NCBI RefSeq assembly: GCF_007971385.1
Contig: NZ_CP042434.1
Span: 4,402,001 to 4,466,000, forward strand
Direction: 5' to 3'
Source of the DNA: Arachidicoccus ginsenosidivorans
Lineage (GTDB): Bacteria > Bacteroidota > Bacteroidia > Chitinophagales > Chitinophagaceae
DNA: 64,000 bases
The notes beneath the pieces are model-generated. The model saw nothing but the letters and a program-made list of their open reading frames with translations, was not told the DNA's origin and ran no database searches. The stretch's first letter is position 1, and every line of letters starts with the position of its first letter. This document shows, one piece after another, positions 1 to 30,233 of the stretch. Position numbers and translations under genes: made by a program.

Positions 1-59
1 TAGAAAAGGGCGTTGGTGAAACCATTGCCTGGAATCAGGCCAGGAACTGGTCTAAGTAA
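1..59 (+). CDS. C-terminal end of a gene cut by the window start
   Basis: An open frame enters from the left edge and stops at TAA 57-59; its last residues read EKGVGETIAWNQARNWSK. A short tail with a '(K/E)G(V/I)xETIxW' pattern is common at the end of NAD-dependent epimerase/dehydratase (SDR) proteins, so that is a guess at the family. Too little is present to assign a function. The following 190 bases are the ino1 promoter region. Confidence 0.35.
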   Translation, partial: EKGVGETIAWNQARNWSK

Positions 60-250: not shown

Positions 251-1570
251 ATGAAACAAAAAGTTCAACCCGCTGAGGGTAAGTTGGGAATACTCATTCC
301 TGGTTTAGGGGCTGTGGCCACTACATTAATCGCTGGTGTAATTGCCAGCAGAAGAGGCCTTGCTGAGCCAGTCGGTTCCCTGACGCAGACTGGCCATATC
401 CGTATTGGAAAAAGAACTGACAATAATTACCCGAAAATAAAGGATTTTGTTCCGGTAGCAAAGCTCGAGGATATCGTATTTGGTGGCTGGGATGTTTATG
501 AGGATAATGTCTATCAGGCAGCAAGTATTGCCAAAGTACTCGATCAGCACTTGTTGGATTCCATTAAAGATGAGCTGGAACAAATCGCTCCGATGAAAGC
601 GGTATTTGATAAGAGTTATGTTGAGAACCTGGACGGCCACCACGTTAAAACCGGTGAAACCAAATGGGATCTGGCACAACAAACCATCAAAGATATTCAG
701 GATTTTAAAGAAAAACATGGCCTGAACCGTATCGTTGTACTTTGGTGTGGTTCTACAGAAAAATACTTTGAAGCTTCTGAAATCCATGAAACAGTAGAAG
801 CATTTGAAGCTGCATTAAAAGCCAACGATGACAGGATCGCTCCAAGTATGATATACGCTTATGCCGCATTGGTACAGGGTATTCCATACGTAAATGGTGC
901 ACCTAACCTGACTGTAGATACCCGCGCTCTGGTACAGTTGTCTAAAGACACCAATACGCCTATTGCAGGTAAAGATTTCAAAACCGGTCAGACTTTGATG
1001 AAAACCATCCTGGCACCAGGTCTGGAAGCACGCTCTTTAGGTGTTAGAGGTTGGTTCTCCACCAATATCCTGGGTAACAGAGACGGACTCGTGCTAGACA
1101 AACCTGAAAACTTTAAAACCAAGGAAGTGTCTAAACTCGGCGTTTTGGAAGATATCCTGCGTCCTGATCTGCATCCTGAACTGTATGGTGATCTGTACCA
1201 TAAGATTCGTATCAATTATTACCCTCCACACGGTGACAACAAAGAAAGCTGGGATAATATTGACATCTTTGGCTGGTTAGGTTATCCAATGCAGATTAAA
1301 ATTAATTTCCTTTGCCGTGATTCTATCCTGGCAGCACCCGTAGCACTGGATCTGGCATTATTTGCAGATCTGGCCAAACGTGCCGGTATGAAAGGCATTC
1401 AGGAATGGTTGTCTTTCTATCTGAAATCACCTCAGACAAAAGAAGGACTTCGTCCGGAAAATGACATCTTCAAACAATTGATCAAATTGCAGAATACCTT
1501 ACGTTATATGATGGGTGAAGAATTAATCACGCATCTTGGTCTGGATTATTATGAAGAAGATGAAGCGTAA
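251..1570 (+). CDS. ino1: myo-Inositol-1-phosphate synthase
   Basis: This cytosolic NAD-dependent enzyme converts glucose 6-phosphate to 1D-myo-inositol 3-phosphate, the first committed step to inositol lipids. The 439-residue length fits bacterial members. An N-terminal Rossmann segment has the glycine pattern GLGAVATT (about residues 18-25). Family hallmarks include the WCGSTE segment, a NGAPNLTVD-type stretch and the later GWFSTNILGNRDG and IRINYYPPHGD regions. The ATG at 251 is preceded by a promoter and palindromes. The gene stands alone: about 660 bp separate it from the next gene. An inositol-lipid operon lies 5-9 kb downstream on the other strand, which suggests its job. Confidence 0.93.
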   Translation: MKQKVQPAEGKLGILIPGLGAVATTLIAGVIASRRGLAEPVGSLTQTGHIRIGKRTDNNYPKIKDFVPVAKLEDIVFGGWDVYEDNVYQAASIAKVLDQHLLDSIKDELEQIAPMKAVFDKSYVENLDGHHVKTGETKWDLAQQTIKDIQDFKEKHGLNRIVVLWCGSTEKYFEASEIHETVEAFEAALKANDDRIAPSMIYAYAALVQGIPYVNGAPNLTVDTRALVQLSKDTNTPIAGKDFKTGQTLMKTILAPGLEARSLGVRGWFSTNILGNRDGLVLDKPENFKTKEVSKLGVLEDILRPDLHPELYGDLYHKIRINYYPPHGDNKESWDNIDIFGWLGYPMQIKINFLCRDSILAAPVALDLALFADLAKRAGMKGIQEWLSFYLKSPQTKEGLRPENDIFKQLIKLQNTLRYMMGEELITHLGLDYYEEDEA

Positions 1571-1595
1571 TTGTATTTGAACTAAGTACAGTACG

Positions 1596-1765
1596 TTTAA
1601 ACAAGGTGTTATTAATGTTTACAGGGTCTTTATCATCAGATTTTGACAATGTCAATAGCATTATAACAACAATTGAAAGATAGTTGGATTCATCCGCCAT
1701 CTGTTCAGCCCCGGGAATGGAGCCCACGCTGAAAACAACACAGATGGCGGATCACCTTGTTTAAC
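1596..1765. ncRNA. Possible structured RNA or long hairpin downstream of ino1
   Basis: Two nested inverted repeats are visible. The outer arms are TTAAACAAGGTG (1596-1607) and CACCTTGTTTAA (1754-1765). The inner arms, 13 bp and perfect, are at 1692-1704 and 1740-1752, and enclose a small TCAGC/GCTGA stem with a C/G-rich loop. There is no coding ORF of note and no T tract, so it is not a plain terminator. I cannot match it to a known RNA family. Either strand could be transcribed. The rest of the 1571-2231 gap shows nothing else I can name. Confidence 0.3.
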
Positions 1766-2231
1766 TTAAAATAACAGTATTAGGGATTTTGAGCATTATC
1801 AGTAGATCAGTTATAGTGATTAAGGTTTATCATAGATCATAGCATCGCTATTGCTGTTCGTTTTGAATCTTTTTGGTTTTGGTTTCAGCGGACATATTAT
1901 TGATTCTTAGTCAATGACATGTCAGCAAAAAAACGACCGAATCAGACTTTGGTGATTTAAGGGCATTTGATCAGTTTTTAATAAGAAGAAAAAGTGTTTA
2001 GCAATTGCTGCATTTAAAAACAGTCAAGCAAACACTGGATCTTGTGGGTAAGGGGAAAATAAGTATTAAGAGGTATAAGGTTGAAAACCAGTATCTGAGG
2101 GTAGCTGAGTTAAGCTAAATGCAGAGGTGGTTTTTAAAAAAATATTTTACTCATAGTGGTATGCTGCTGCGGGCTTATTATTAAAGCCACAGCCTTTAAG
2201 CGGCCACAACAACGTTAGAAGCAAAAAACAA

Positions 2232-4808
2232 ATGTCTTTTAAGATCAAATTGCGAAGTCTACTTCTGTTTATAGTATGTCTGCTTGTATCTATAGGCGGA
2301 CTCTGGGCACAGGATCATCCGGGTTCCGTTGTTATCAAGGGTTTGGTGACAGATGCGACAAGTGGTGCCCCTATTGCCAATGTGAGCGTGTTCTTTAGCG
2401 GATCTGCCGGTGTAATGACCGACTCTACCGGACACTATACTTTATTTGCTGCCAGGAGGTTTGTCAAAGATAATCATCTGAAATTTATTTATGTCGGTTA
2501 TAAGACCGGTTCCATAGACGTTAATTTTGACGTTCCCAAACAGACCATTGATATGCAGCTGGAAGAAAGCGGGCATGCATTGGCGGATGTGGTGGTTAAA
2601 AACCATAAGGAAAGATATCGCAACCGGGATAATCCTGCCGTGGCGCTTATTAGAAAAGTCATTGAGCATAAGGACGAAAACCGCATGAATGCCTTTGAAA
2701 CAGCTTCCTATAAGCAGTATGAGAAAATGACGGTTTCTGTCAGTAATTTCTCGGAAAAACTCAAGAGCAAAAAGGCCCTGAAAAAGTATCAGTTTTTATT
2801 AAACAATGTCGATACCACCAAGGTGAAAGGCAAGAGCCTGCTACCTATTTATTTGGAGGAGACCAGTTCCAATAATTATTTCCGCAGTCATCCCAAAGAT
2901 GAAAAAAAGGTGATCACAGGTGCCAGAAAAGTCGATTTTGGGGAATTTATTGATACCAAAGGTGTTACCAAATATCTGGGAAGCTTATATGCAGCCATTG
3001 ATATTTATGAAAATAATATTACGCTGCTATCCAACCAGTTTTTAAGCCCGATTGCAGGATCGGCTCCAACTTTTTATAAATTTTATATCCGGGATACCGT
3101 GGAGCGCGATGGTATTAAAATCGTGCACCTCGCATTCTCACCCAGAAATCCACAGGATATGCTTTTCAGGGGTAATCTGGATATTACCCTGGATGGCCAT
3201 TACGCCGTGCAAAGAGCCCGGCTCTTCTCTCCCATTGGCATCAATGTCAATTTCCTAAGAGCCATGAATATCTCCCTGGATTTTGTGAAAACAGATAATG
3301 GCCGGTATCTATTGACCAAAAGTGATATGATGGCTGATTTTGGACTTTCCAAAAAAGGCATGGGCCTGTATGGGGAAAGAGTCATTTCATTTTCGGATTT
3401 TAAGACCGATCAGCCGCTGGCTGATTCCATATTCAAGGGTTCTCAGGTCGTTCAAAAGGACTCTGCGGATGCCAGAAATGCGCAGTTCTGGGCACTCCAC
3501 CGGACCGATACCCTGACAACTGCTGAGTCTAAAACTTATATGAATATTGATTCATTAAAGAACATGAAGTCTTTTAAACGGACCATGGACTGGATCACCT
3601 TCATATTTGCAGGGTACAAACAGGTGGGACCCGCTGAAATAGGACCTGCTAATACTTTTTATAGCTTTAACCCCGTGGAAGGCTTTCGGTTAAGAGCGGG
3701 TGGTCGTACCACCACCAGGCTGAGTGACCGGATATTCTTTGAAGGTTATGGCGCTTATGGTTTTAAGGATCAGAAATTTAAGTATTTTGGTAGCGCTACT
3801 TATTCTCTCAATGATAAATCCATTTATAAGTTTCCTCAAAACTATATAAGTGTTAGTTATCAGCATGATACGAAAATTCCCGGTCAGGAATTACAATTTG
3901 TTCAGGAAGACAACTTTTTCCTATCCTTCAAAAGAGGGAATAATGATAAATGGTTGTATAATGACTATTTTAATATTAACTATAAAAGAGAATTCGAGAA
4001 TCATTTCTCCTATGAATTCAATGCGCGTTACTGGAAACAGTCACCGGCGGGAAGCCTGGACTTTAATTACAACGGCGGCCAACCAGGCTTATTGAGGGCG
4101 GTAGATCATGTAACAACTGGAGAAGTAGGCCTTACGCTTCGCTATGCACCTGGTGAGGTGTATTACCAGACCAAGCTCTATCGTATTCCACTGATCAACA
4201 AATATCCGATCTTCCAGCTCAGATATACAGCTGGCATTAAGGGATTATTTGGAGGGGAATATAACTACAATAATTTCCAGGCCAATATCTTTAAAAGGTT
4301 TTATTTGTCTCAGTTCGGCTTTACGGACGTAACAGTGGACGGGGGCTATATCGCGGGTAAAGTACCTTATCCCCTGCTTTCACTGCCCAGGGCCAATCAG
4401 ACCTACGCCTACCAGCTGAATTCTTATAACTTGATGAACTTCATGGAGTTTGCCAGCGATCATTATGTATCGATTATGGCAGATCATTATTTTAACGGCT
4501 TCTTTTTCAATAAGATACCGCTTCTTAAGCGCTTAAAATGGCGTGAGGTCATTGAAGGAAAGGCTTTGTTTGGAGGATTAAGGGATGAAAATAACCCCAT
4601 GGTAAATCAGGATCAAATGCGCTTTCCTTATACAGACGGGATGATGAGCACATTTGCCCTGCAAAATGATCCATATTTTGAGGCCGGTTTTGGGATTACC
4701 AATATATTCAAGATTTTAAGGGTGGATTATGTCCGCCGGTTTACTTACCTGGAACACAGTGATATCGCTAAATGGGGTATTCGGTTCAGGATTAAATTTG
4801 ACTTTTAA
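2232..4808 (+). CDS. DUF5686 family outer-membrane protein with carboxypeptidase-like regulatory domain
   Basis: The 858-residue protein begins with a signal peptide (hydrophobic residues 8-26, cleavage near GLWA/QD). A CarboxypepD_reg-like beta-sandwich follows (about residues 33-110, motif IKGLVTDATSGAPIANVSV). The remainder matches the DUF5686 family, with long alternating aromatic/polar strands typical of an outer-membrane barrel and a C-terminal ending in IRFRIKFDF. It heads an operon with the DUF4833 gene (22 bp) and the fatty-acid hydroxylase. The biochemical role of DUF5686 is not known to me; the setting points to envelope or lipid function. Confidence 0.85.
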   Translation: MSFKIKLRSLLLFIVCLLVSIGGLWAQDHPGSVVIKGLVTDATSGAPIANVSVFFSGSAGVMTDSTGHYTLFAARRFVKDNHLKFIYVGYKTGSIDVNFDVPKQTIDMQLEESGHALADVVVKNHKERYRNRDNPAVALIRKVIEHKDENRMNAFETASYKQYEKMTVSVSNFSEKLKSKKALKKYQFLLNNVDTTKVKGKSLLPIYLEETSSNNYFRSHPKDEKKVITGARKVDFGEFIDTKGVTKYLGSLYAAIDIYENNITLLSNQFLSPIAGSAPTFYKFYIRDTVERDGIKIVHLAFSPRNPQDMLFRGNLDITLDGHYAVQRARLFSPIGINVNFLRAMNISLDFVKTDNGRYLLTKSDMMADFGLSKKGMGLYGERVISFSDFKTDQPLADSIFKGSQVVQKDSADARNAQFWALHRTDTLTTAESKTYMNIDSLKNMKSFKRTMDWITFIFAGYKQVGPAEIGPANTFYSFNPVEGFRLRAGGRTTTRLSDRIFFEGYGAYGFKDQKFKYFGSATYSLNDKSIYKFPQNYISVSYQHDTKIPGQELQFVQEDNFFLSFKRGNNDKWLYNDYFNINYKREFENHFSYEFNARYWKQSPAGSLDFNYNGGQPGLLRAVDHVTTGEVGLTLRYAPGEVYYQTKLYRIPLINKYPIFQLRYTAGIKGLFGGEYNYNNFQANIFKRFYLSQFGFTDVTVDGGYIAGKVPYPLLSLPRANQTYAYQLNSYNLMNFMEFASDHYVSIMADHYFNGFFFNKIPLLKRLKWREVIEGKALFGGLRDENNPMVNQDQMRFPYTDGMMSTFALQNDPYFEAGFGITNIFKILRVDYVRRFTYLEHSDIAKWGIRFRIKFDF

Positions 4809-4830
4809 TATTATAATATAATAAAAAGTA

Positions 4831-5589
4831 ATGCGAGGAGTTTATCGTTTGCCGCATGATTTTAAGCAGGCAAACAAAAAAGTGAAGAGCGTGACAAGTT
4901 CAAAGACGGTTGAGAAGGTAGGTGAAAACACTTGGAGACAAAGTAGCATCTTTACATTGACAGCTTTGATACAATCGAAAGACCGTTTTAAATTGCTGTT
5001 TTTGGGGTTTATAATGGTGTTTTTGAGTGTACTGCAACCCAATGTAGCAAGGGCACAAAGCACGATTTTAAGAGAGGGAATGGCTTACCCCATTCCGCCT
5101 ACGACCGCAAACCGTATGTTTTTTTTGCAAAGAACACCTAATACCAACACCATAGCCTGTGACTTAAATGTAGGCAGTAACGGTCAGGTGAACGCTAAAA
5201 TACCCCTTAAAACTTATTGGTTGCGCTACGGGGATTCCCCCAAAGGGCAGAAAAAGGATTTGAATTTTATACAGCGACACTTTGCTTATGGGTTGAATAT
5301 CAAGCAAAGAGGTGATGGAAAATATGAATTCTGGTTTGTTTCCTATAAAAAGTACCACATGTACCTGCTACAGACTAAAGATGGTAAATGGCGGGTATAT
5401 GGAAAGATAAATGACAAACTAACAGTACTTGGCAGTATCTTTATCTATATAAACGGCGGCAGCTTCTGGAATCCGCACGTAGATTATGTGGAACTAAGAG
5501 GCCAGGACCTGAGTAGTGGTAAAGAAGAAGTGCAAAGACTCACCGACGTTAAAAAAGACCCTGATGAGGGCCATGACAAAGCGGGCTAG
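4831..5589 (+). CDS. DUF4833 domain-containing exported protein
   Basis: A 252-residue protein with an unusual start: about 50 polar residues precede a hydrophobic stretch (LLFLGFIMVFLSVLQ) and a likely cleavage site ARA/QS near residue 76. The true start may be further in, though no good ATG sits just before the hydrophobic segment. The mature part (RMFFLQRTPNTNTIACDLN onward) matches the DUF4833 family found in Bacteroidota. The function of the domain is unknown. It lies 22 bp after the DUF5686 gene and 45 bp before the fatty-acid hydroxylase, so the three are probably co-transcribed. Confidence 0.75.
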   Translation: MRGVYRLPHDFKQANKKVKSVTSSKTVEKVGENTWRQSSIFTLTALIQSKDRFKLLFLGFIMVFLSVLQPNVARAQSTILREGMAYPIPPTTANRMFFLQRTPNTNTIACDLNVGSNGQVNAKIPLKTYWLRYGDSPKGQKKDLNFIQRHFAYGLNIKQRGDGKYEFWFVSYKKYHMYLLQTKDGKWRVYGKINDKLTVLGSIFIYINGGSFWNPHVDYVELRGQDLSSGKEEVQRLTDVKKDPDEGHDKAG

Positions 5590-5634
5590 CAGAAAATTGA
5601 TTAAATTTGTAACAGCGAATTAAACTTAAGTGTT

Positions 5635-6309
5635 ATGGCAAAGAATTTTGTATCCAACTCTACGGAGTCAACAAGAATGTTTAAAAGTAGCCTTTTGGAA
5701 AGCTTGTCCAAGGTGCATTTTACCGTTCCCTTATTTATATTTATACCGGCAATCGCCATTTTTATATACAGGGCTTTTGGTGTTTATCATGTAAGCCTGC
5801 TGTATTTTCTGGGGTATTTTGCCCTGGGACTGTTTATCTGGACGCTCACTGAGTATGTGCTGCACCGGTTTATTTTTCATTTTCATCCCAGTTCTTCCTG
5901 GGGAAAAAGAATTCATTTTATTTTTCATGGTGTGCATCATGATTATCCCAGAGATAAAAAAAGACTGGTAATGCCCCCTTCTGTGAGTATCCCACTAGCG
6001 CTACTGTTTTATTTTATCTTCTATCTGATTTTACCTAATGGGGGTGCACTGAGTAGCTTTTTTGCTGCCTTTTTAGCGGGATATCTGGCTTATGATATGA
6101 TGCACTATGCGATGCACCATCATAATTTTAAGTCACCTTTGATGAAGCGGATCAAACAACATCATATGTTGCACCATTACCAGGATGAACACAAAGGTTT
6201 TGGAGTGAGCAGTGCGCTTTGGGATAAAATCTTTGTTTCTGGCTTCCCGAAGAAAAAACAAGGAGCAACACAAGGAGCAACACAGGGAGCAACTCAGACC
6301 AGCAAATAA
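5635..6309 (+). CDS. Fatty-acid hydroxylase / sterol desaturase family protein
   Basis: An integral membrane di-iron oxygenase of 224 residues. The histidine clusters typical of the family are present: H77-H84 (HRFIFHFH), H98-H102 (HGVHH), H157-H163 (HYAMHHH) and H176-H181 (HHMLHH). Hydrophobic segments lie near 30-50, 55-72, 118-133 and 139-155. The layout resembles the fatty-acid 2-hydroxylase (FA2H/Scs7) branch, which hydroxylates the acyl chain of ceramides; with sphingolipids common in this phylum that is the best guess. The C-terminus carries three QGAT repeats from a near-perfect 12-bp tandem repeat (about 6259-6294), an odd, probably unstructured tail. Confidence 0.85.
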   Translation: MAKNFVSNSTESTRMFKSSLLESLSKVHFTVPLFIFIPAIAIFIYRAFGVYHVSLLYFLGYFALGLFIWTLTEYVLHRFIFHFHPSSSWGKRIHFIFHGVHHDYPRDKKRLVMPPSVSIPLALLFYFIFYLILPNGGALSSFFAAFLAGYLAYDMMHYAMHHHNFKSPLMKRIKQHHMLHHYQDEHKGFGVSSALWDKIFVSGFPKKKQGATQGATQGATQTSK

Positions 6310-6404
6310 GGCGAGTAAATAAAGCAATTTTAAAGGGGTCAGGATAATTGTGATCCAGGACCAGGATGAGGGCTAGGGGCACGGTGCGAATACAGACTGG
6401 TTTG

Positions 6405-6572
6405 CTAAGTCACTGCTAATTTCTTTTTGGTATTCATAACACTTTCATTTTGTAAATGTGCATTTTCTGGTACATTCAATTTGTAGGGGCGATTAAATGC
6501 CTCCTGTGAAACTTTGAAATAAGCGGACAACTTTATGATGGCTTCTTTGGACAGCCCTTTTTTATAATGTAG
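6405..6572 (-). pseudogene. C-terminal remnant of a HigA-like antitoxin
   Basis: About 55 residues resemble the end of a helix-turn-helix HigA-family antitoxin (KGLSKEAIIKLSAYFKVSQ and then EAFNRPYKL), stopping at 6405. The N-terminal half of the HTH is missing or unrecognisable upstream, and no HigB toxin is adjacent. It looks like a relic. From about 6573 to 6810 I see no gene. Confidence 0.5.
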
Positions 6573-6810
6573 CATATCCGATTCTGACCTTATATTTAAA
6601 CTTGCATTCAGGAATTGGTGATGATTTGGCAATCAATCTTAAGTAGGTTTAGCGAAGATATGATATTTTAATATTCAGACCAAATTCAACGTATTACGGC
6701 TTTTCGGCGTCAAGCTATGGATTTATAAGGAATTTTAAAATCTCCTACTTAGAAAATATTAATTGGATCTAAACGGAATCCCAAAAAAATAGGCAAGGTA
6801 TTTAAGGCAA

Positions 6811-7230
6811 TTACTTTTTAAAAACAAAATACTTCAGCATTGGGAAGTTCCAGGCAAAACGAACGATGAGGCCTGTGCCCAATCTGGCAACAAATTTATT
6901 GAAGCCTAGTTTATCCACAAAGGCGTAAGTGCCATAAGTGTTGAGTAGTAGTGACCCTACCCAGACAAGCAGATAACGGGCGACCTGATGGCTTTTCTTT
7001 TGCTCAAAACTCTTAAAAGCAAAATTTCGATTCATTAAAAAGTTAATAACCCCACCGCAGATTACACCGGCGCTGGTAGATATAACGATATTTAAATGGA
7101 AAACGACAGAACAGAGAGTAAAGACACCCAGGTCCACGATGGTAGAACTTAGTGAGGATAATTCCGATTTAAGGAATTGCATCACCGAGACCTTTTTCTT
7201 TTCATTGAGTTGTAATATCTTCTTTGCCAT
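6811..7230 (-). CDS. GtrA-like family membrane protein
   Basis: A 139-residue protein with four hydrophobic segments and the GtrA signature pattern (VDLGVFTL early, GGVINFLMNRNFAF in the middle, aromatic-rich C-terminus). GtrA family members are thought to help flip or present polyprenyl-linked sugars across the membrane. Here it is the last gene of the minus-strand operon with nucleotidyltransferase, ATP-grasp, CDP-alcohol phosphotransferase and HAD phosphatase (131 bp after the HAD gene), so translocation of a lipid head-group precursor is a plausible role (inference). Confidence 0.85.
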   Translation of the reverse strand: MAKKILQLNEKKKVSVMQFLKSELSSLSSTIVDLGVFTLCSVVFHLNIVISTSAGVICGGVINFLMNRNFAFKSFEQKKSHQVARYLLVWVGSLLLNTYGTYAFVDKLGFNKFVARLGTGLIVRFAWNFPMLKYFVFKK

Positions 7231-7361
7231 CGCTTATTTAAAAATGTATCAAATGCTTTTTAGATTGCCCAAACCAGATTGGATTAGCGCTTAGTTGCTT
7301 TTGACTTACTTTATCTAATCCTAAATTGGAATATTAATAATCAAAGTTTGTTTGCTGTTAT

Positions 7362-8126
7362 TTATTTTTTAGAAAGGAGCAGTTCCGGTAACTGACTCAG
7401 ACTTTTTATGGGTATCAATTGATATTTATTGACACTTTCTTCATACTGACTTTGATCACCGGTACCGGCGCTTCCTGGAGCCTCTTCCCACCCCTTCCCT
7501 TGTATCCAGATGCCTTGACAGCCTATGGATGTTGCAGGGATCATATCTTTTGTCAGAGCGTCTCCAATGGCTACTACCCTATCTGTGGGCAGATGCAGGC
7601 TGTCCGCACCTAGCTGCCAGATCCTGGGATCTGGCTTTTTAACCCCCACCACTGCGGATTCAGTAATCGTCTCAAAAAGGGGTAAAATGCCAAAATCCTT
7701 CAGTACGGTATGCAAATTTCCATAAAAATTGGAGACCATCGCGATCCGGTATTTTTGTCCCAGCATTTTTAAGATGCCTGCATGTTGCTGGCAGTTGTAG
7801 GATGCCTCTTGATAGGCTTCATCTGCAATTGATTTCTGATCCATGATGGTGCAGGGCAGCCCGTGCTGATTTAAATAAGCCGCCTGGATGGCCAGCTTTT
7901 TTTCCAACAGATCCAAAAAGTTATCCTCTTTTTGAATGATTTTCTTTTGTGCTAAGCTGCGCTCACCATGGGCAAAGGCCCTGCTGTAAAGCGAGGGATC
8001 CAGGCCTGGATGGCGGGCCTCCCATAAAGGATAGAGGATATGCACCCAATGCAGTCCACCGGTATCGATGGTGCCACCAAAATCAAATAATAAAGCTTGT
8101 ATTTTGTCTGTATTTAGCATGGGCAT
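7362..8126 (-). CDS. HAD-superfamily hydrolase with atypical motif I
   Basis: A 254-residue HAD fold protein. Motif I reads DFGGT: nucleophile D15 is present, but the second aspartate (general acid/base, normally DxD) is G17. Motif II Ser is in IAMVSNFYGN, motif III Lys in VGVKKPDPRIW, and motif IV Asp in VVAIGDALTKDM. A helical cap fills residues 25-120. The D-to-G change argues for slowed phosphatase activity or a different chemistry, unless another residue substitutes. Its place in the inositol-lipid operon suggests an inositol-phosphate or lipid-phosphate substrate. An alternative start is the Met at residue 3. Confidence 0.8.
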   Translation of the reverse strand: MPMLNTDKIQALLFDFGGTIDTGGLHWVHILYPLWEARHPGLDPSLYSRAFAHGERSLAQKKIIQKEDNFLDLLEKKLAIQAAYLNQHGLPCTIMDQKSIADEAYQEASYNCQQHAGILKMLGQKYRIAMVSNFYGNLHTVLKDFGILPLFETITESAVVGVKKPDPRIWQLGADSLHLPTDRVVAIGDALTKDMIPATSIGCQGIWIQGKGWEEAPGSAGTGDQSQYEESVNKYQLIPIKSLSQLPELLLSKK

Positions 8127-8251
8127 TTTGTGTCTGGGTGGACGCCACTGTTGGCCGCTCTATTTGATTATTTTTTAATTTTTATTGACGGATTTGAGCG
8201 TCTTTTTGCAATAGCTTTCCTGGCGGTTGATTAAAAAAAGCATAATCGGGT

Positions 8252-9130
8252 TCAGGATAAAGATATCAAAAAGAAAATAAAGCCAAGGCTGACCGATAAA
8301 TAACCAGATAAACAGGAAATCACCCTTGTATTGAACTGGATGATATTGGTATATTTCATCAGTGGCCGGTTGGCCATTAAAAAGTCGGCTCTTAACTCCG
8401 GCGTCATAAAATCAGGTTCTGTTCTCAATTTATGCAAAAATTTCTGCAACCACGGAGATGCACTTTCCTGGATTTTGGTATAATTATGATAGGTTTTCAT
8501 GGCAAAGCGGCGGATACCTGTAAAATCATTAATCTGCTTTTCCACTTCTTTGCTATTATCAAATTCACTACCGCTATCTCCTTTCAGAAAATACAAGTAT
8601 AAATTACGGTAGTAATCCGCCATGGCCGATTGAATCACGTGTGAAAAACCAGACACAACTGCCAAAATCCAGACCAGTGGAGACCAGCCTTCATTGATCA
8701 GCCTGAGCGATAAGGCGATGGCAATGGCACCGAACCAAAAATCGCCGGCAATACCGTCCAGTATTCTGCCAAACCGGCTTTTATTATCAGTAAGTCTGGC
8801 TAGTTGGCCATCAGCACTATCCAACGAGTTGGCGAAGATTAACAGCAGCATGCCAACTATGTTGATCCAGATATTATTCCAGTAAAACAAAATACCAGCC
8901 ACTACGCCGATATAAATACTGGTGATAGTGACCGTATTGGGTGTGATATTTAGTTTGGCGCATGCCTTGGCAATACGCAGGCCAATAGGACGGTAAAACC
9001 AGATATCAATTTTCTCTTCTGTGTCACGGCTTTTTAAGGAAGCTGCAAATTCACTGGCAGCTGCCTGCGCCCTTTCTTGTTCGTCGATTTTTAATTGTTC
9101 TTCTACTTGATTACTCATGGCTTCTTGCAA
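8252..9130 (-). CDS. CDP-alcohol phosphatidyltransferase family enzyme (inositol-lipid synthase candidate)
   Basis: A membrane enzyme that joins a CDP-activated alcohol to a second alcohol. The 292 residues include an N-terminal charged tail (1-45), several membrane helices, and the CAP motif: D104, D107, G108, A111-R112, G121, D125, D130. The first part fits D-x2-D-G-x2-A-R-x8-G-x3-D exactly, but the last aspartate is spaced x4 rather than the usual x3. The neighbouring nucleotidyltransferase suggests that the donor is CDP-inositol and the acceptor a diacylglycerol or ceramide, not CDP-diacylglycerol plus inositol phosphate. The start at 9130 is followed 3 codons later by another Met. Confidence 0.87.
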   Translation of the reverse strand: MQEAMSNQVEEQLKIDEQERAQAAASEFAASLKSRDTEEKIDIWFYRPIGLRIAKACAKLNITPNTVTITSIYIGVVAGILFYWNNIWINIVGMLLLIFANSLDSADGQLARLTDNKSRFGRILDGIAGDFWFGAIAIALSLRLINEGWSPLVWILAVVSGFSHVIQSAMADYYRNLYLYFLKGDSGSEFDNSKEVEKQINDFTGIRRFAMKTYHNYTKIQESASPWLQKFLHKLRTEPDFMTPELRADFLMANRPLMKYTNIIQFNTRVISCLSGYLSVSLGFIFFLISLS

Positions 9131-9166
9131 GGTATGATGTCTAAATGTCTGCTTATAAGTAAATGT

Positions 9167-10230
9167 TTATTTATCAGCGGCTTTGTTGTTATGCACTGGT
9201 TTAGGGCGCTGCTTGTTACGGTCAGCATGTTCCTGCATCGCTACAACCGTTGCTGTGCGAGCCGTACTTGCTGGAACTGCCTTTTGCCCATTGGTACTTT
9301 GATTAAAAGCTGTTTTTGGCTGAAAGAGACTAGTCGTCTGCTTTTGCGTTGCACTGTCTATTGCCTGGGTCAGCAGCTGGTAAATGGCTGCGGCCGCCTG
9401 CTTTCTGCAGGGTGCAAAGCTAGGCCAGTCATTAAAATCAATTATGGCTATATTGCCTGATGCATCTATAACAGCGTCTCCGCCATAGATAGGCACCTGT
9501 GCTGCCACGGCTGTCTTGTCCGCGAGCGCACGCAGGGCTGATTGATTAAACTTAAAATGCTTTGTTTCTCCATTAATTGCCTCAAATTCCTTGTATTTAT
9601 AATGGCCCTTTTCGTATGGATACAGCCAGTGGAAAAATCAGTACCGCTGACCCCGTAAAATTTAATCAAATCACCGGCCAGGTGACTGGAGGCGACTACT
9701 TCTGCTATATTTCTTGCCTTAAATGCTGCCAGTAGTTCAGTCGCCTCTTCCGGATTTCCAGCAAAGACGACGTCTTCTTTAATGATTGCATGGAAATCCC
9801 CTCGCTTAAGCCATAAACCGTGCCCCTGATCTAGCTTTTGCAAATCCTTCCTATCATACCCCTGGGTAGGGATAATCAAGCTGGGAGCAGTTGCAATGTT
9901 ACTGTTCAGTAAGATCCGGGTAATATTGGATCTAAAACAATGTTCAATACCATCAGGGCTATTGAGCATGGCTATTTGCTGACCATAGGTCTTTTGAATG
10001 GATTGTAGCCGGGAAAGCACTTCTGGATTGCGGGACATGGAAAAAATCAGCCGGGTATCTTTAAAGGTATCTGTTTTATGCTCGGACTTTAAAAATTCGT
10101 GCTCATGATAGGTCGTCAGCACTGCCCCACGCTCTTTAAGAAGATCCGCCACCATTTGAAAAATGGTGGCATCGTTGTTAATATGGTTGGGTGAGTGCTT
10201 TACTGCCCTTTTTATACCGATTACCTGCAT
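9167..10230 (-). CDS. ATP-grasp-like protein of the inositol-lipid operon (one-base frameshift)
   Basis: Frame one runs from 10230 to about 9640. There, GATTTTTCC has T5 where T6 would join it to the second frame, which ends at 9167. The restored product is about 354 residues. The N-terminal part (IGIKRAVKHSPNHINND) is of unknown fold. Later features (GLWLKRGDFHAIIKEDVVF, then GGDAVIDASGNIAIIDFND) resemble an ATP-grasp nucleotide- and metal-binding core. The Gln/Lys/Pro-rich tail of about 65 residues looks disordered. It lies between the nucleotidyltransferase (34 bp) and the CDP-alcohol transferase (36 bp). ATP-grasp enzymes include ITPK-type inositol phosphate kinases, so a kinase or ligase acting on the head group is possible. 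Confidence 0.7.
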
Positions 10231-10264
10231 GTATCTTAAGTAAGTGTCTTAATAATCAATTGTT

Positions 10265-11011
10265 CTACTTTATCCCAAATCCTTCCCTTTTAGCCAGGTT
10301 ATTTTCTAATAATGCCTTTGCTAAAGCAATATCACTGACATGATCAATATCAATGATCCTGCCTAAATCATAGGCCTTCAGATTTAAGCCTGCATTAAGG
10401 AGTGCCTGTTGATAATTGCGCATTTTGCTGACCTGTGCCTGCATGGCCGTTTCTGCTACCTGGAGTGCTTTATTTCTGAATAGATAAATACCTCCGGAGA
10501 TCCATGGCTGTCCTGGCAGTGGGTCACTGGCGAACTTTGTAATCTTAAAATCGGGATCTATATAAACATGTAATGGCTTGTCGTCCTCTACATAAGAAGT
10601 GACAGCCATTAGCCCGTCCAGTTCCTTTTGTTGTTTAAACGCGTCAATATACCCTTTAAAGGCCTCTTCTCTGAATACAGGATCGATCGTGGAAATACAG
10701 ACCGCTGACTGATCCTCGGGTGCCATCTTGTTCGCCAGCGCATAAAAGCTGTGAAAAGAACTAGGCGTGTCTTTGTATAGGATCTTTATAGGTGTGCCGG
10801 CTAGATTTGGCAGGCTTTCAATAAACTGGCCCACCTCAATTTCTGCGTTATTTAAGATAATATAAATGGATGTAGCATTATTTGCCTGAAAAATACGGAT
10901 CAGGCGCTGGATTAAGGCTTCCCCGGCAATTTGTACCATCGGTTTAAACCCCTGGAAACCGTCTGCCCTTAATCTGGAACCCGCTCCTGCTGCAATAATG
11001 CCATATACCAT
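10265..11011 (-). CDS. Sugar-phosphate-type nucleotidyltransferase, probably for inositol phosphate
   Basis: A cytosolic NTP_transferase-family protein of 248 residues. The N-terminal nucleotide-binding signature AAGAGSRL is at residues 7-14, followed by KPMVQIAGEALIQRLI; metal-binding Asp candidates are in CISTIDPVF and the late GRIIDIDHVSD. It is the first gene of the minus-strand operon. MobA-like and GlmU-like enzymes share this fold, but the partner CDP-alcohol phosphotransferase and the nearby ino1 make CTP:inositol-1-phosphate cytidylyltransferase the best proposal, as in archaeal inositol-lipid or di-inositol-phosphate synthesis. Substrate not shown by sequence. Confidence 0.8.
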   Translation of the reverse strand: MVYGIIAAGAGSRLRADGFQGFKPMVQIAGEALIQRLIRIFQANNATSIYIILNNAEIEVGQFIESLPNLAGTPIKILYKDTPSSFHSFYALANKMAPEDQSAVCISTIDPVFREEAFKGYIDAFKQQKELDGLMAVTSYVEDDKPLHVYIDPDFKITKFASDPLPGQPWISGGIYLFRNKALQVAETAMQAQVSKMRNYQQALLNAGLNLKAYDLGRIIDIDHVSDIALAKALLENNLAKREGFGIK

Positions 11012-18535: not shown

Positions 18536-18899
18536 GTCTTCGATTGCTTGCCATATGAAAAAAAGGTAACTGATTATTAATAATCTTAAAAAATCAGTGT
18601 CAAATATCTTATAATTCTACTTTTTTAATTCTACTGTTTTTGCGCTTGCTTGCCAATGTTTTTTTGACCAGTGACGCTCCAAAAGGTTTAATCGGTTTTG
18701 AACTTTTTTTGAAGTTTTTTTTGCGTATTTGATGTAATAAACTTTGCAGAAAATTCCATCTAATATTCGCGAACCGTTATTTCAAATTGCGTTTACTTCC
18801 AGGATTTTTGTAACACGAATCAATTGCTTATCTTGAGTTGTTGTTTTACTCCATTTCCGTCTGAAAACCGCTCTTTATCACTTTTGTGGCACAAAGATA
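18536..18899 (-). other. Intergenic stretch with promoter-like and terminator-like ends; possible small RNA or broken small gene
   Basis: A TATCTTTG element (minus strand, 18899-18892) fits the Bacteroidota -7 consensus. A terminator hairpin lies about 370 bp downstream (18499-18535). Between them the minus strand holds short frames that change over A7 and A8 runs (18700-18722). One begins MEFSAKFITSNTQKK, and another ends in a basic stretch KPFGASLVKKTLASKRK. A small basic protein broken by homopolymer errors, or a non-coding RNA, would both fit. I recognise neither. Confidence 0.25.
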
Positions 18900-18967
18900 G
18901 GGCAGAATTTGTTAGTAAAAAACTAAGAATATGTAAAATTGACTTTAAATTGAAAAAAACTGCATGC

Positions 18968-20184
18968 TTACTGTTTAATCGTTGCCTTTGGATACACTTT
19001 AAGTGCCTGTTCTAAACAATCCATCGCTTTTTCTATCTCCTGGACATTGAGCACATAGGCCAGCCGGACCTCGTTTTTACCAAGTCCGGGGTGGCATAAA
19101 ATCCTGGGGCGGGTGCCATCATAAGTGTTTGATTATTATAAGAGAAATCTTCCAATAACCATCTGCAGAAATCTTCGGAGTCTGCTACCGGCAAACTGGC
19201 CATGGCATAAAATGCGCCACCTGGATTGGGGCAAAACACCCCTTCCATGGCATTTAGGCGCCTAACCAGGGCGTCTCTTCTGTTTTTATATTCCTGGCGG
19301 GTCCCCTCAAAATAATCAGCGGGCAGCTCTGTAGCGGCCTCTCCCAAAATCTGGGCAAATCCCGGCGGGCTAAGCCTTGCCTGCGCAAATTTCAGCACCG
19401 TTTCAAGGACTTCCTTGTTTTTAGTGACCAGGGCTCCCATTCTGGCACCGCAGGCACTGTAGCGCTTACTGATTGTATCTGTCAGGATCACATTTTGCTC
19501 TGCCCCTTTTAAGGACATAGCGCTGATAGGCGTGTCGCCATAGCTGAACTCCCGGTAAGCCTCATCGGAGAAAAGATACAGGTTATGCTTTAATATGATA
19601 TCTCTAAGATTATGCATTTCTTCCGGGCTATACAGATATCCAGTGGGATTATTAGGGTTGCAAATAATAATAGCTTTCGTCCTGTCGGTAATCAGTTTTT
19701 CAAAGTCACTGACAGGCGGCAGGGCAAAACCATCTTGAATGCTGGAAGGTACCGGAACCACGGATACGCCGGCCTCCACCGCAAAACCGTTATAATTGGC
19801 ATAAAATGGTTCAGGAATAATGACCTCATCTCCCGGATTCAGGCAGGCCAGAAAGCTAAAAAAGATGGCCTCCGAGCCGCCTGTGGTAATCAGAATCTCC
19901 TCTGAACTAACATCTATTCCAATGCTTTTATAATAAAGCGCGAGTTTTTGGCGGTAAGATTCATTTCCTGCACTGTGCGTGTATTCCAGGACCCGCATAT
20001 GGTTGTGCCTCACCGCATCCATGGCGGCAGGTGGGGTCTCAATATCGGGTTGACCGATATTTAAGTGATAGACATGGATGCCCTTTTGTTTGGCATTTTC
20101 AGCAAAGGGCACCAGTTTGCGTATAGGGGAAGCCGGCATTTCAATGCCTCTTTGGCTTATAGATAAACTAGACATATATTGCAC
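18968..20184 (-). CDS. Class I/II PLP-dependent aminotransferase (one-base frameshift near the C-terminus)
   Basis: An aspartate-aminotransferase-fold enzyme. Substrate/PLP features include NPNNPTGYLYS, SDEAYREFSY and ISKRYSACGARMG, with the PLP lysine in SKRY. The uncorrected frame stops at 19033 with an unrelated tail. At about 19090 the minus strand reads CCCCGGACTT; one more G restores family-like sequence (TPGLGKNEVRLAYVLNV) through to the stop at 18968, for about 405 residues. The real substrate cannot be read from sequence; aspartate or another amino acid is likely. The start could be Met 1 or Met 4. Confidence 0.85.
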
Positions 20185-20349: not shown

Positions 20350-21297
20350 TTAATCCAATCCCAGGCGCTGTTCTATCAGGTATTTATTACGGTCCGCACC
20401 GTTTCTGGCTATCAGCTCCCCGATAAATCCCGCCAGAAAAAGCTGCATCCCTATGACCATAGCTGTCAGGGCAATAAAAAAAGGTGGGCTATTGGTAAGG
20501 CCCTGGAAAGGATGAATAAATTTATTAATAATCAGTACGATACTGATGACAAAGCCAATCAGAAAACAAAGGCTGCCGTAAAGTCCGAAAAAGTGCATAG
20601 GACGTTTGCCAAAGCGGCTGATAAAGGAAATGGTACCCAAATCCAAAAAACCATTGACAAAACGCTCCAGACCAAACTTCGTGACCCCAAATTTACGGGC
20701 ACGATGCTCGACTACCTTCTCTCCGATCTTTCTAAAACCGGCCCACTTGGCCAGCACCGGGATATAACGGTGCATTTCGCCATACACTTCAATGCTCTTG
20801 ACAACTTTATTTTTATAAGCCTTTAATCCACAATTAAAATCATGAAGTTTAATGCCGGAGCTACGCCTGGCCGCTGCATTAAATAATTTAGAGGGCAGGT
20901 TTTTGGTCAGTTTATTATCAAAGCGTTTTTTCTTCCAGCCACTGACCAGATCATAACCCTGCTCATTAATCATCTGATAAAGCTCAGGTATCTCATCGGG
21001 ACTGTCCTGCAAATCGGCATCCATGGTAATCACCACGGAACCTGATGCGACCTTAAAGCCTTCGTTGAGGGCCGCTGATTTTCCGTAATTGCGCTGAAAC
21101 TTAATCCCTTTAAAGTTCGTATTGATTTTAGAGATGGACTGGATGACCTGCCAGCTGTTATCTGTGCTGCCATCATCCACCATAATCACTTCATAGGTAA
21201 AATTATTTTCCTTCATGACCCTGGTGATCCAGTCTGCTAGTTCCGGCAGGGATTCATCTTCATTGAATAAAGGAACAATTACGGATATATCTATCAT
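20350..21297 (-). CDS. Glycosyltransferase family 2 (polyprenyl-phosphate sugar transferase type)
   Basis: A 315-residue GT2 enzyme related to dolichyl-phosphate mannose synthase and ArnC/GtrB. The GT-A domain has SVIVPLFNEDESLPEL, VDDGSTDNSW and the metal-binding DADLQDSPDEIP. Two C-terminal hydrophobic segments (about 230-255 and 270-295) anchor it. Such enzymes load a sugar onto a polyprenyl phosphate at the inner face of the membrane. It heads away from the aminotransferase and is followed, in reverse order, by DUF4199 and dihydroorotase genes. The gap of 143 bp to DUF4199 leaves operon status unsure. Confidence 0.9.
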   Translation of the reverse strand: MIDISVIVPLFNEDESLPELADWITRVMKENNFTYEVIMVDDGSTDNSWQVIQSISKINTNFKGIKFQRNYGKSAALNEGFKVASGSVVITMDADLQDSPDEIPELYQMINEQGYDLVSGWKKKRFDNKLTKNLPSKLFNAAARRSSGIKLHDFNCGLKAYKNKVVKSIEVYGEMHRYIPVLAKWAGFRKIGEKVVEHRARKFGVTKFGLERFVNGFLDLGTISFISRFGKRPMHFFGLYGSLCFLIGFVISIVLIINKFIHPFQGLTNSPPFFIALTAMVIGMQLFLAGFIGELIARNGADRNKYLIEQRLGLD

Positions 21298-26099: not shown

Positions 26100-26189
26100 A
26101 ATGCTTTGTTGAATTGTAAGTTGATCTATAATAGGTGTTCACACGTAGGTCCAAATTCGCTTCCATTTTTCATTTGTGAAAAATCACTG

Positions 26190-26726
26190 TCAGTTCTTAA
26201 CCTGGAATTTGCCGCTTTCCATAATTGCGCCACCGGCACTTCTAAGCTGATAAACATATAATCCCCGATAGTAATTATCCAGGGAGACTTTAATAACGGC
26301 ACCAGTAAGGGCCAGTTCCGTCATTTTCCTTCCGGTGAAACTGAAAACAAACAGTTTCGCATCCTTTGGAACGGTTTTCTCAAACTTAAAATTGATATAG
26401 GAAATTGCCGGATTGGGATAACAGGATACTTGCCTCTTGGCCGTATCAAATAAATTATCACTCAAATCCATGTTAAAAGGGTTAGATAAAGCGGTCGTTA
26501 AAGCATTCGTTAACGGGGCGGTAGTCGTGCTGGCCGAAGGGGTGTTCAATGCACAAAGACTGGAAGCGACACTTGCGGCATGCAGCTGGTTAAGGGAACC
26601 AAAGATGACGCTCATTAAAAGGGTAAGGCCTGCTGTAACCAAGCAGACAACAGACCGCAGCCGTTTTACGGTGCGGGTCTCATATGCCAGAGGATGCCTT
26701 AATTTATTACGTAAAAATATATCCAT
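26190..26726 (-). CDS. Secreted protein with T9SS type A C-terminal sorting domain
   Basis: A 178-residue protein with a basic N-terminus (RNKLRHPLAYETRTVKRLR) and a hydrophobic signal/anchor at about 27-45. A low-complexity Ala/Ser/Thr spacer follows. The last 75 residues form a Por-secretion (T9SS type A) sorting domain: CYPNPAISYINFKF, FSFTGRKM, GLYVYQLRSAGG, GKFQVKN. There is almost no cargo between signal and sorting domain, so it may be a truncated or minimal cargo protein. It is convergent with nothing and 90 bp from glmM. Confidence 0.75.
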   Translation of the reverse strand: MDIFLRNKLRHPLAYETRTVKRLRSVVCLVTAGLTLLMSVIFGSLNQLHAASVASSLCALNTPSASTTTAPLTNALTTALSNPFNMDLSDNLFDTAKRQVSCYPNPAISYINFKFEKTVPKDAKLFVFSFTGRKMTELALTGAVIKVSLDNYYRGLYVYQLRSAGGAIMESGKFQVKN

Positions 26727-30059: not shown

Positions 30060-30233
30060 GGAGTTACTACTTATAATTTTTGAGCGGCAAAGGTACTAAG
30101 AATTACCCAAAGCCAAAAATAGGTAAAGGAGTTTTCAGCAGGTGGATAGTCCCTTTGGAACTGGATCAGCACCAGCCAAGGGATTGTGCTTAACTTTCAT
30201 TAGATTTGCTGAGATTACTTTTTATATTTATAC

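What the first reader, a model, noticed from the sequence alone, without database searches (positions are those of the whole stretch)
251..11011. Complete candidate route to inositol lipids through a nucleotide-activated inositol
Seen: ino1; a NTP-transferase; a CDP-alcohol phosphotransferase with CAP motif; an ATP-grasp protein; a HAD phosphatase; a GtrA-like protein; and, between, a lipid hydroxylase operon. Known: in Bacteroides, ino1 works with a CDP-diacylglycerol-dependent synthase and a phosphatase; a second proposed bacterial route without a phosphatidylinositol-phosphate intermediate has been described in Bacteroidota (work on gut Bacteroidetes inositol lipids), and archaeal cells use CDP-inositol. 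Inference: here the NTP-transferase makes CDP-inositol and the CAP enzyme transfers it to diacylglycerol or ceramide. The ATP-grasp and GtrA genes are extra members whose roles are not described to my knowledge.
Basis: partly seen in the sequence, partly recalled or inferred. Interest (0 to 1): 0.75.

Follow-up and report, generated by a model that had tools for sequence, protein, structure and literature searches.

The report
Inositol lipid cluster beside ceramide genes
This stretch carries the genes of a known but unproven bacterial route to inositol lipids; it sits next to genes that start ceramide synthesis, its transfer enzyme lacks a residue thought essential for catalysis, and it has an ATP-using enzyme that the published scheme does not mention.

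Summary
NTP-transferase, CDP-alcohol enzyme and HAD beside ino1 form the "alternative inositol lipid cluster" of Heaver 2022, CDP-inositol included: in print, unproven. New here:

(1) Serine palmitoyltransferase, a GNAT protein and an epimerase-type protein lie directly upstream of ino1. This genome, a sister species and 26 of 29 named cluster genomes lack PI-dihydroceramide synthase. One of them, Sphingobacterium sp. HMA12, reportedly contains ceramide phosphorylinositol. The acceptor is probably ceramide, reached directly.

(2) The CDP-alcohol enzyme lacks the fourth signature aspartate, the presumed catalytic base: kept in 0 of 95 cluster enzymes and 22 of 22 lower-scoring homologues.

(3) The ATP-grasp gene adjoins the NTP gene in 78 of 79 named loci and is fused to it in two. 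Sequence profiles lean to inositol-phosphate kinases, fold to peptide-type ligases; I favour a kinase weakly.

(4) Against: three Dysgonomonas loci keep NTP and ATP-grasp without this CDP-alcohol enzyme.

Here the ATP-grasp and CDP-alcohol genes are frame-broken, probably assembly errors. New variant of a known kind.

The parts
1..59 (+). 3' end of an NAD-dependent epimerase/dehydratase-type gene (327 aa, CerR-like), last of three ceramide-type genes (SPT, GNAT, epimerase at genome C1:4398678-4402059) upstream of MIPS
251..1570 (+). ino1, myo-inositol-phosphate synthase (MIPS), 439 aa
   Evidence: PF07994 5.8e-104, PF01658 8.3e-33; only match in the genome
2232..4808 (+). DUF5686 protein with carboxypeptidase-regulatory-like N-terminus, likely outer-membrane (inferred); probably of the kind Heaver et al. 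name as BT_1527 homologue beside both inositol clusters (by description, not compared)
   Evidence: PF18939 2.2e-58; in 18 of 51 full-flank loci
4831..5589 (+). DUF4833 protein, function unknown
   Evidence: PF16117 3.1e-39; in 15 of 51 full-flank loci
5635..6309 (+). fatty-acid-hydroxylase family protein, candidate ceramide hydroxylase (inferred)
   Evidence: PF04116 1.1e-17; in 9 of 51 full-flank loci
6811..7230 (-). GtrA-family membrane protein; BT_1524 is reported to be of this family
   Evidence: PF04138 5.1e-17
7362..8126 (-). HAD-superfamily protein; motif I D-F-G-G-T (second Asp is Gly), other HAD motifs kept
8252..9130 (-). CDP-alcohol phosphotransferase lacking D4; 3' end out of frame here (homology goes on to about 8178)
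   Evidence: PF01066 1.3e-11
9167..10230 (-). ATP-grasp gene, split over two frames (9466-10230 and 9167-9508)
   Evidence: fold of a relative
10265..11011 (-). NTP-transferase, candidate CTP:inositol-phosphate cytidylyltransferase

Best explanation
The locus makes an inositol sphingolipid (ceramide phosphoinositol) by activating the head group rather than the lipid. Steps: (a) SPT, the GNAT protein and the epimerase-type protein just upstream make ceramide, and the hydroxylase may decorate it; (b) MIPS makes inositol 3-phosphate (in relatives without MIPS the inositol must come from elsewhere); (c) the ATP-grasp protein, working with the NTP-transferase, phosphorylates inositol or inositol phosphate, and the HAD protein removes a phosphate before or after activation, so the extra phosphate is transient; (d) the NTP-transferase makes CDP-inositol; (e) the D4-less CDP-alcohol enzyme moves phosphoinositol from CDP-inositol straight onto ceramide, without phosphatidylinositol and without an AUR1-type synthase; (f) GtrA (an HpnL-like protein in many relatives) and DUF5686 help to move the lipid. 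Shown by sequence: the genes, their linkage, the motif losses, no match over cut-off to the other route's two enzymes in this genome. Inferred: every reaction. The confidence is for (a)+(d)+(e); for the ATP-grasp protein being a kinase in (c) I give about 0.45.
For: NTP profile: best solved match is 4jd0 (2.4e-12), named T. maritima inositol-1-phosphate cytidylyltransferase in PMC12275187; R, K and D of the active site are invariant in 12 of 12. CDP-alcohol enzyme: best solved matches AF2299 (7.6e-15) and the CDP-inositol-using bifunctional 4mnd (2.1e-5), PI synthases lower. Ceramide as acceptor: SPT (736.7 bits, cut-off 640) starts 3.6 kb upstream of MIPS with GNAT and epimerase genes between; same order in another species of the genus; all three with the cluster in 15 of 51 full-flank named loci. 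No BT1523-type PI-phosphate synthase over cut-off in own genome or in 26 of 26 named cluster genomes (one scores 307 of 350; the two hybrid loci below were not in that search). No PI-dihydroceramide synthase in own, sister and 26 of 29 named genomes; the 3 positives are that 307-bit genome and the two hybrids. Sphingobacterium sp. HMA12 carries MIPS-NTP-ATPgrasp-CAP-HpnL-HAD (L111), shows neither enzyme over cut-off, and its main sphingolipids were reported as ceramide phosphorylethanolamine and ceramide phosphorylinositol (PMC5824009). In two Dysgonomonas loci a cassette like BT_1522-1525 stands in the slot of the CDP-alcohol gene (enzymes scanned for L134 only). Kinase idea: profile matches to ITPK4 (1.9e-6), Entamoeba and human ITPK (Entamoeba 5.6e-4 with the second alignment); Mg-site motif I-D-x-N as in the ITPKs aligned, where the two ligases aligned show E-L-N; NTP-ATPgrasp fusion and a genome where this pair stands apart from the rest.
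Against: The D4 aspartate, whose change to Asn nearly abolished activity in a mycobacterial PI-phosphate synthase, is missing, so catalysis is not assured; in 16 of 95 the next residue is Asn, in 2 Ile or Ala. Three Dysgonomonas loci keep NTP and ATP-grasp (HAD and MIPS in two of the three) without this enzyme, and one of these genomes shows no match to the CDP-alcohol profile at all. Eleven of 25 named cluster genomes have no MIPS. For the ATP-grasp model the best folds are LysX/RimK/Ddl ligases (Z about 22); an ITPK is rank 25 in Foldseek; ITPK Pfam matches are few and weak. Fifteen of 51 loci carry a PfkB kinase in the cluster, 8 of the 14 of these tested being MIPS-less, which weakens the need for a second inositol kinase. 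The HMA12 lipids were 'data not shown'; in a paper on another strain of S. detergens (a species holding the cluster, L107) the passages found name inositol phosphoceramide only as a possible lipid. In the 14 control genomes neither NF052561 nor NF052609 rang over cut-off, so L134, L140 and P. faecalis are the only positive controls. Orthology of the GNAT and epimerase genes to bCerS/CerR was not tested.
Confidence: 0.58

Rival explanations
1. Heaver et al. 2022 as printed: NTP makes CDP-inositol, the CDP-alcohol enzyme moves it to diacylglycerol to give PI, and the HAD protein acts like AUR1 and passes the head group to dihydroceramide.
For: Published proposal; [quoted passage not shown] a fusion of CDP-alcohol enzyme and HAD in Prevotella veroralis (all).
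Against: The HAD proteins match HAD-IA families, with HAD hydrolases and haloacid dehalogenases as nearest solved relatives, and lack the second motif-I Asp (Gly in 88 of 88); that such a protein does an AUR1 reaction would be unusual (inference; no membrane-segment prediction was run). The gene neighbourhood points to ceramide. A HAD of the family is kept in L134, which already has a PI-DHC synthase.
Confidence: 0.2
2. The head group is inositol but the ATP-grasp protein is a ligase (RimK/LysX type) that joins an amino acid or similar to the inositol or its nucleotide, giving a modified inositol lipid that has been missed.
For: Fold best matched by LysX, ArgX, RimK, Ddl. In 9 loci the cluster also holds a class-III aminotransferase and an IolG-like dehydrogenase, enzymes that could make an amino-inositol.
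Against: Profile search ranks ITPKs first; Mg-site Asp instead of Glu; PI-DHC was confirmed by HPLC-MS in B. vulgatus and P. veroralis, which the paper ties to the NTP/PT/HAD cluster, so no lasting modification is needed (that they hold the ATP-grasp gene was not checked).
Confidence: 0.15
3. The activated head group is another polyol phosphate, not inositol; MIPS is a frequent neighbour by history.
For: CpgD, whose top structural hit is the same 4jd0, makes CDP-glycerate. Eleven of 25 named cluster genomes lack MIPS.
Against: MIPS in 14 of 15 ATP-grasp genomes of the 395 and in this locus; HMA12 lipids; PI-DHC in B. vulgatus and P. veroralis.
Confidence: 0.07

Closest known systems
Alternative inositol lipid cluster of Bacteroides vulgatus / Prevotella (Heaver et al. 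2022, PMC9246714, passages read)
   Same: NTP-transferase, CDP-alcohol phosphotransferase and HAD beside MIPS; the locus-tag gaps (BVU_RS13095, 13105, 13115) leave room for the ATP-grasp and HpnL-like genes (inference from numbering, not looked up)
   Different: The word ATP-grasp does not occur in the paper and the passages seen do not speak of a missing D4; it proposes diacylglycerol first. Here ceramide genes are linked and the acceptor is argued to be ceramide
CDP-inositol:dialkylether-glycerol route of Rhodothermus marinus (Jorge et al. 2015; known to me from citations and from recall, paper not read)
   Same: Head group activated as CDP-inositol, then moved to a lipid hydroxyl
   Different: Lipid acceptor; whether its synthase has D4 or an ATP-grasp partner could not be checked
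IPCT/DIPP synthase of hyperthermophiles (4jd0, 2xme, 4mnd)
   Same: Cytidylyltransferase plus CDP-alcohol enzyme using CDP-inositol
   Different: Soluble product; D4 is present in 4mnd and in AF2299 in the alignments
B. thetaiotaomicron BT_1522-1526 inositol phosphoceramide cluster
   Same: MIPS, a GtrA protein, end product class
   Different: No PIPS or PI-DHC synthase over cut-off in the window genome
CPG2 pathway of Caulobacter with CpgD (PMC12275187, passages read)
   Same: Nucleotide-activated head group put on a sphingolipid
   Different: CDP-glycerate; ATP-grasp not mentioned in the text
Inositol 1,3,4-trisphosphate 5/6-kinases (ITPK, ATP-grasp kinases)
   Same: C-terminal ATP-grasp subdomain by profile, I-D-x-N Mg motif; plant ITPK4 carries a HAD-like domain without the second Asp
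   Different: Weak Pfam matches only, overall fold nearer to ligases, bacterial, short

Membership tests
Alternative inositol lipid cluster (Heaver 2022) | NTP-transferase, CDP-alcohol phosphotransferase and HAD gene near MIPS | tested here: met
   definition
Alternative inositol lipid cluster (Heaver 2022) | Cells make inositol lipid | not testable with these tools
   No lipidomics of this strain; HMA12, another cluster holder, reported positive
CDP-alcohol phosphotransferases | Pfam PF01066 over cut-off | tested here: met
   45.6 bits against 22
[quoted passage not shown]
   D4 is Gly in the window and not Asp in 95 of 95 cluster enzymes; definition. Seven of eight present. It may still work like one (inferred)
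CTP:inositol-1-phosphate cytidylyltransferase | Three active-site residues (R16, K26, D112 as printed in PMC12275187) | tested here: met
   R13, K23, D110 invariant and aligned with R, K, D of 4jd0
CTP:inositol-1-phosphate cytidylyltransferase | Activity with inositol phosphate | not testable with these tools
   assay needed
ATP-grasp superfamily | ATP-grasp fold | tested here: met
   AlphaFold model of the Runella zeae relative, pLDDT 90.5; Foldseek 5e-13 to ArgX, VIA Z 22.6 to LysX, rmsd 2.8 over 249 residues
ITPK inositol phosphate kinases (PF05770) | Score over the Pfam cut-off | tested here: not met
   Matched by 6 of 43 and 2 of 16 members at best E 0.014 and 0.0048; the one score printed is 14.3 bits against 23
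ITPK inositol phosphate kinases (PF05770) | Nearest solved structures by fold are ITPKs | tested here: inconclusive
   8oxe rank 25 in Foldseek, behind ligases
ITPK inositol phosphate kinases (PF05770) | Asp-x-Asn at the Mg site (role of the motif recalled) | tested here: met
   D259 and N261 invariant in 43 of 43; ITPKs D-x-N, ligases ArgX and PsnB E-x-N
HAD phosphatases | Motif I DxD | tested here: not met
   D-x-G in 88 of 88. Motifs II (Ser-Asn), III (Lys-Pro) and IV (Gly-Asp...Asp) present; cites a HAD active without the second Asp
BT_1522-1526 type route | PIPS (NF052561) and PI-DHC synthase (NF052609) over cut-off in the genome | tested here: not met
Bacterial ceramide pathway | Serine palmitoyltransferase | tested here: met
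   NF047600 736.7 bits, cut-off 640
Bacterial ceramide pathway | bCerS and CerR orthologues | tested here: inconclusive
   GNAT PF00583 and epimerase PF01370; no comparison with the Caulobacter proteins was made

The most novel reading that the evidence does not exclude
A family of CDP-alcohol phosphotransferases without the fourth signature aspartate makes inositol phosphoceramide directly from CDP-inositol and ceramide with a different catalytic base (His164 or Asp172 are near-invariant candidates), and the ATP-grasp partner is a bacterial inositol-phosphate kinase related to ITPKs that adds a transient second phosphate which the HAD protein removes.
Probability: 0.25. Interest if true: 0.8.

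Novelty: new variant of a known kind. Interest (0 to 1): 0.6.

Why it matters
The alternative inositol lipid pathway of Bacteroidota is described in print as not functionally confirmed. The findings turn it into sharp tests: which acceptor, which catalytic base, and what the ATP-grasp enzyme does. If the direct ceramide route holds, bacteria reach a eukaryote-like sphingolipid by a Kennedy-type shortcut that needs neither phosphatidylinositol nor an AUR1 enzyme, and host-associated and environmental Bacteroidota share it. A bacterial inositol kinase of the ITPK kind would also bear on where eukaryotic inositol phosphate kinases came from.

Tried and rejected
Rejected: that the ATP-grasp gene is a chance neighbour (linkage). 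Rejected: that the hydroxylase operon is unrelated; DUF5686, DUF4833 and the hydroxylase recur beside the cluster in Runella, Dyadobacter and Parapedobacter. Rejected: a BT_1523-type synthase in this genome (the only match is this CDP-alcohol gene at 29 bits, cut-off 350). PF14378 as a marker of IPC synthase was too broad: three weak own-genome matches, one just over cut-off, and matches in 11 of 14 controls, so NF052609 was used.

Considered and left open: the model in which HAD turns Ins3P into free inositol and the ATP-grasp protein rephosphorylates it. It does not explain why HAD is kept in MIPS-less genomes; the bisphosphate model does, but neither is tested. A fold preference for ITPK was looked for and not found (rank 25; no ITPK in the 50 rows shown). 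DUF4833: model of mean pLDDT 73.3, no PDB match at E 0.001 or better, nothing concluded. HAD profile against PDB gave general HAD proteins. Papers: no paper since 2022 held three of the five terms inositol phosphate kinase, ATP-grasp, CDP-alcohol phosphotransferase, nucleotidyltransferase, inositol phosphoceramide; 'CDP-inositol' is in 10 papers of the library; one search listed 12 of 119 papers for CDP-inositol with ceramide terms and I saw the listing only. Most subscription papers are not held, so this is no proof of absence. Passages of PMC8024741, PMC10765375 and PMC11087976 were seen and changed nothing.

Rows dropped: only CDP-alcohol proteins scoring 340 or more (95) or 60-200 (22) on my own profile were counted; those between were not (L141, 218 bits, on a short contig), and L067 and L069 had no called ORF with a score. 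In one search only 51 of the 80 named loci (20,500 bases or more) were used for the ceramide-gene count; 26 and 29 of the 80 were searched, 25. The 80 loci were chosen for having the ATP-grasp gene, so its 80 of 80 is by construction.

Full report
What is there. Plus strand: MIPS, DUF5686, DUF4833, fatty-acid hydroxylase. Minus strand, convergent: NTP-transferase, ATP-grasp, CDP-alcohol enzyme, HAD, GtrA. The window is part of a 5.77-Mb single-contig genome given as 94.7% complete. The ATP-grasp gene lies in two frames and the 3' end of the CDP-alcohol gene is out of frame; against another species of the genus (G018), 2 of 26 query ORFs show such breaks, both in this cluster (DUF5686 and DUF4833 are counted twice in the 26, from two overlapping loci). 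glmM, an aminotransferase gene and an ABC-F gene elsewhere in the window look broken too (by eye), so assembly error is the likelier cause, though decay of the pathway in this strain is not excluded.

What is already known. Heaver et al. 2022 (PMC9246714; passages read) describe this set as an alternative cluster in B. vulgatus and Prevotella, propose CDP-inositol and diacylglycerol, and suggest that HAD acts as PI-dihydroceramide synthase. They state that this is not confirmed. They cite Jorge et al. 2015 for CDP-inositol in phospholipid synthesis. A 2023 review repeats the scheme (PMC10191378, passages). The GtrA gene BT1524 has a reported lipid effect in one study (PMC8791184, passages) and none by TLC in another.

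Linkage. Of 41 loci around CDP-alcohol homologues (L019 and L050-L089), 15 hold the NTP gene and the same 15 hold the ATP-grasp gene (one further weak NTP match, L072, not counted). In these 80, NTP is found in 79 (the miss is a 4.4-kb contig), CDP-alcohol enzyme in 77, HAD in 72; NTP lies within 400 bases upstream of ATP-grasp in 78 of 79, and the CDP-alcohol gene within 400 bases downstream in 76 of 77 (the exception both times is L124, where genes are rearranged). NTP and ATP-grasp are one 539-aa protein in L142 and L143. In G462 the NTP-ATP-grasp pair sits apart from CDP-alcohol-HAD-MIPS. So the ATP-grasp enzyme belongs with nucleotide activation.

Rarity nearby. In the family sample 2 of 79 genomes, both of the same genus, have a close CDP-alcohol homologue (15 others match only at E 6e-8 or weaker), while homologues of 40-60% identity occur in other families of the class and phylum. 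Lateral transfer is possible; no tree was made.

Ceramide. Directly upstream of MIPS lie serine palmitoyltransferase, a GNAT protein and an epimerase-type protein (genome C1:4398678-4402059). The other species of the genus has the same order. Fifteen of 51 full-flank named loci carry all three together with the cluster: Runella, Dyadobacter, Rhabdobacter, Parapedobacter. A metalipidomics paper notes that these three genes are not close together in sphingolipid-producing Bacteroidota (PMC11334938, passage), so this arrangement is informative, with the caution that I did not test orthology of the last two. The BT-type PI-phosphate synthase is not over cut-off in the own genome or in 26 named cluster genomes. 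PI-dihydroceramide synthase is found in 3 of 31 genomes searched and not in the own genome, its congener or HMA12. The three are Parabacteroides faecalis, with a PIPS beside it of 307 bits (cut-off 350), and two hybrid Dysgonomonas. The 14 control genomes gave no match over cut-off for either family. HMA12 is reported to contain ceramide phosphorylinositol as a main sphingolipid (PMC5824009, passage, data not shown there). From this I infer that the CDP-alcohol enzyme, perhaps with HAD, makes it.

The CDP-alcohol enzyme. The signature is described as eight absolutely conserved residues with D4 as likely catalytic base, and a D4-to-N mutant nearly lost activity (PMC4634129, passages). Here D4 is Gly in 94 and Ser in 1 of 95 cluster enzymes; 22 of 22 lower-scoring homologues keep D. 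The next residue is D in 75, N in 16 and something else in 4. His164 is invariant in 96 of 96 and Asp172 present in 95 of 96 sequences, the window included. I recall no family of this kind described without D4, but did not search for it.

The ATP-grasp enzyme. AlphaFold model: mean pLDDT 90.5, pTM 0.87 (Runella zeae sequence, 43-row alignment). Foldseek: ArgX 5e-13 first, StITPK1 rank 25 at 8e-12. VIA: LysX Z 22.6, RimK 22.0, no ITPK among the 50 rows shown. Sequence profiles: ITPK4 1.9e-6, then a graspetide ligase 2.8e-4, then ITPKs; with the other alignment Entamoeba ITPK 5.6e-4, ArgX 0.005, ITPK4 0.02. Pfam: ITPK is the family most often matched in the larger set (6 of 43), but in the smaller one it has 2 of 16 against RimK 3 and Imm40 4, all weak; ATPgrasp_ST matches 3 of 43. 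The Mg motif is I-D-x-N, as in the ITPKs aligned. Arabidopsis ITPK4 carries a HAD-like domain that also lacks the second motif-I Asp (PMC7614388, section read), a parallel and no more. Since species tied to the cluster were reported to hold PI-DHC, any phosphate added is probably transient. I lean to a kinase at about 0.45.

MIPS-less genomes. Eleven of 25 named cluster genomes have no MIPS match: 2 Runella, 5 Dyadobacter, Rhabdobacter and 3 Parabacteroides (several are drafts). In 15 of 51 loci a PfkB kinase stands in the cluster; of the 14 of these whose genomes were searched, 8 lack MIPS. HAD and ATP-grasp stay, so they are not simply tied to the MIPS product.

Results against the simple reading. 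L134 and L140 have a PgpA-GtrA-PIPS-PI-DHC synthase cassette in place of the CDP-alcohol gene but keep NTP and ATP-grasp; L134 also keeps HAD and MIPS, L140 shows neither in its stretch (for L134 the PIPS and PI-DHC synthase are over cut-off and the PgpA is not; for L140 PIPS, PgpA and GtrA are judged by position and similarity, its PI-DHC synthase is over cut-off). L128 keeps NTP, ATP-grasp, HAD and MIPS with an unrelated gene in the slot, and its genome shows no match to the CDP-alcohol profile. Either these are remnants or CDP-inositol has a second use.

Extended clusters. Nine of the 40 loci L050-L089 (L052, L053, L057, L060-L065) also hold a class-III aminotransferase and a Gfo/Idh/MocA-type dehydrogenase; the one scanned (L062) has inositol 2-dehydrogenase as best NCBIfam match (68 bits, cut-off 355). 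Seven of the nine have MlaE, MlaF and MCE genes, and four have two ATP-grasp copies. An amino-inositol lipid is a speculation worth testing.

Verdict. A new variant of a known kind; interest 0.6. The main scheme was in print, but the missing catalytic aspartate, the closely tied ATP-grasp partner and the ceramide linkage are worth a specialist's attention.

Noticed in passing
L052, L053, L057, L060-L065 (around the CDP-alcohol gene): Clusters with an added class-III aminotransferase and IolG-like dehydrogenase, in seven of nine MlaE/MlaF/MCE, and in four two ATP-grasp copies: possible amino-inositol lipid with its own transporter.
   Followed up: partly
L134:10992-14588, L140:10992-14588, L128:10884-12656: Dysgonomonas loci in which a BT_1522-1525-like cassette (L134, L140) or an unrelated gene (L128) stands in the slot of the CDP-alcohol gene while NTP and ATP-grasp remain.
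   Followed up: partly
L142:9227-10846, L143:9227-10846: NTP-transferase and ATP-grasp fused into one 539-aa protein in two MAGs.
   Followed up: yes
window 25700-26190, 18700-19300, 29500-30200, 38116-39929: glmM, an aminotransferase and an ABC-F gene, and probably an ABC transporter gene pair, look frame-broken (by eye), pointing to indel errors in the assembly.
   Followed up: partly
L050:5114-6049 and 15 of 51 full-flank loci: A PfkB-family kinase sits in the cluster of Runella, Dyadobacter, Rhabdobacter and Parapedobacter; substrate unknown, inositol possible.
   Followed up: no
window 4831-5589: DUF4833: recurs beside the cluster, beta-rich model of modest confidence, no fold match in PDB at E 0.001.
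   Followed up: partly
L019:5379-8890: In the other species of the genus three export-type genes (outer-membrane factor-like, HlyD-like, ABC permease, judged by eye) lie between the hydroxylase and GtrA genes.
   Followed up: no
window 20350-21297: A GT2-type glycosyltransferase with C-terminal hydrophobic stretches (judged by eye), a possible partner for a GtrA protein.
   Followed up: no
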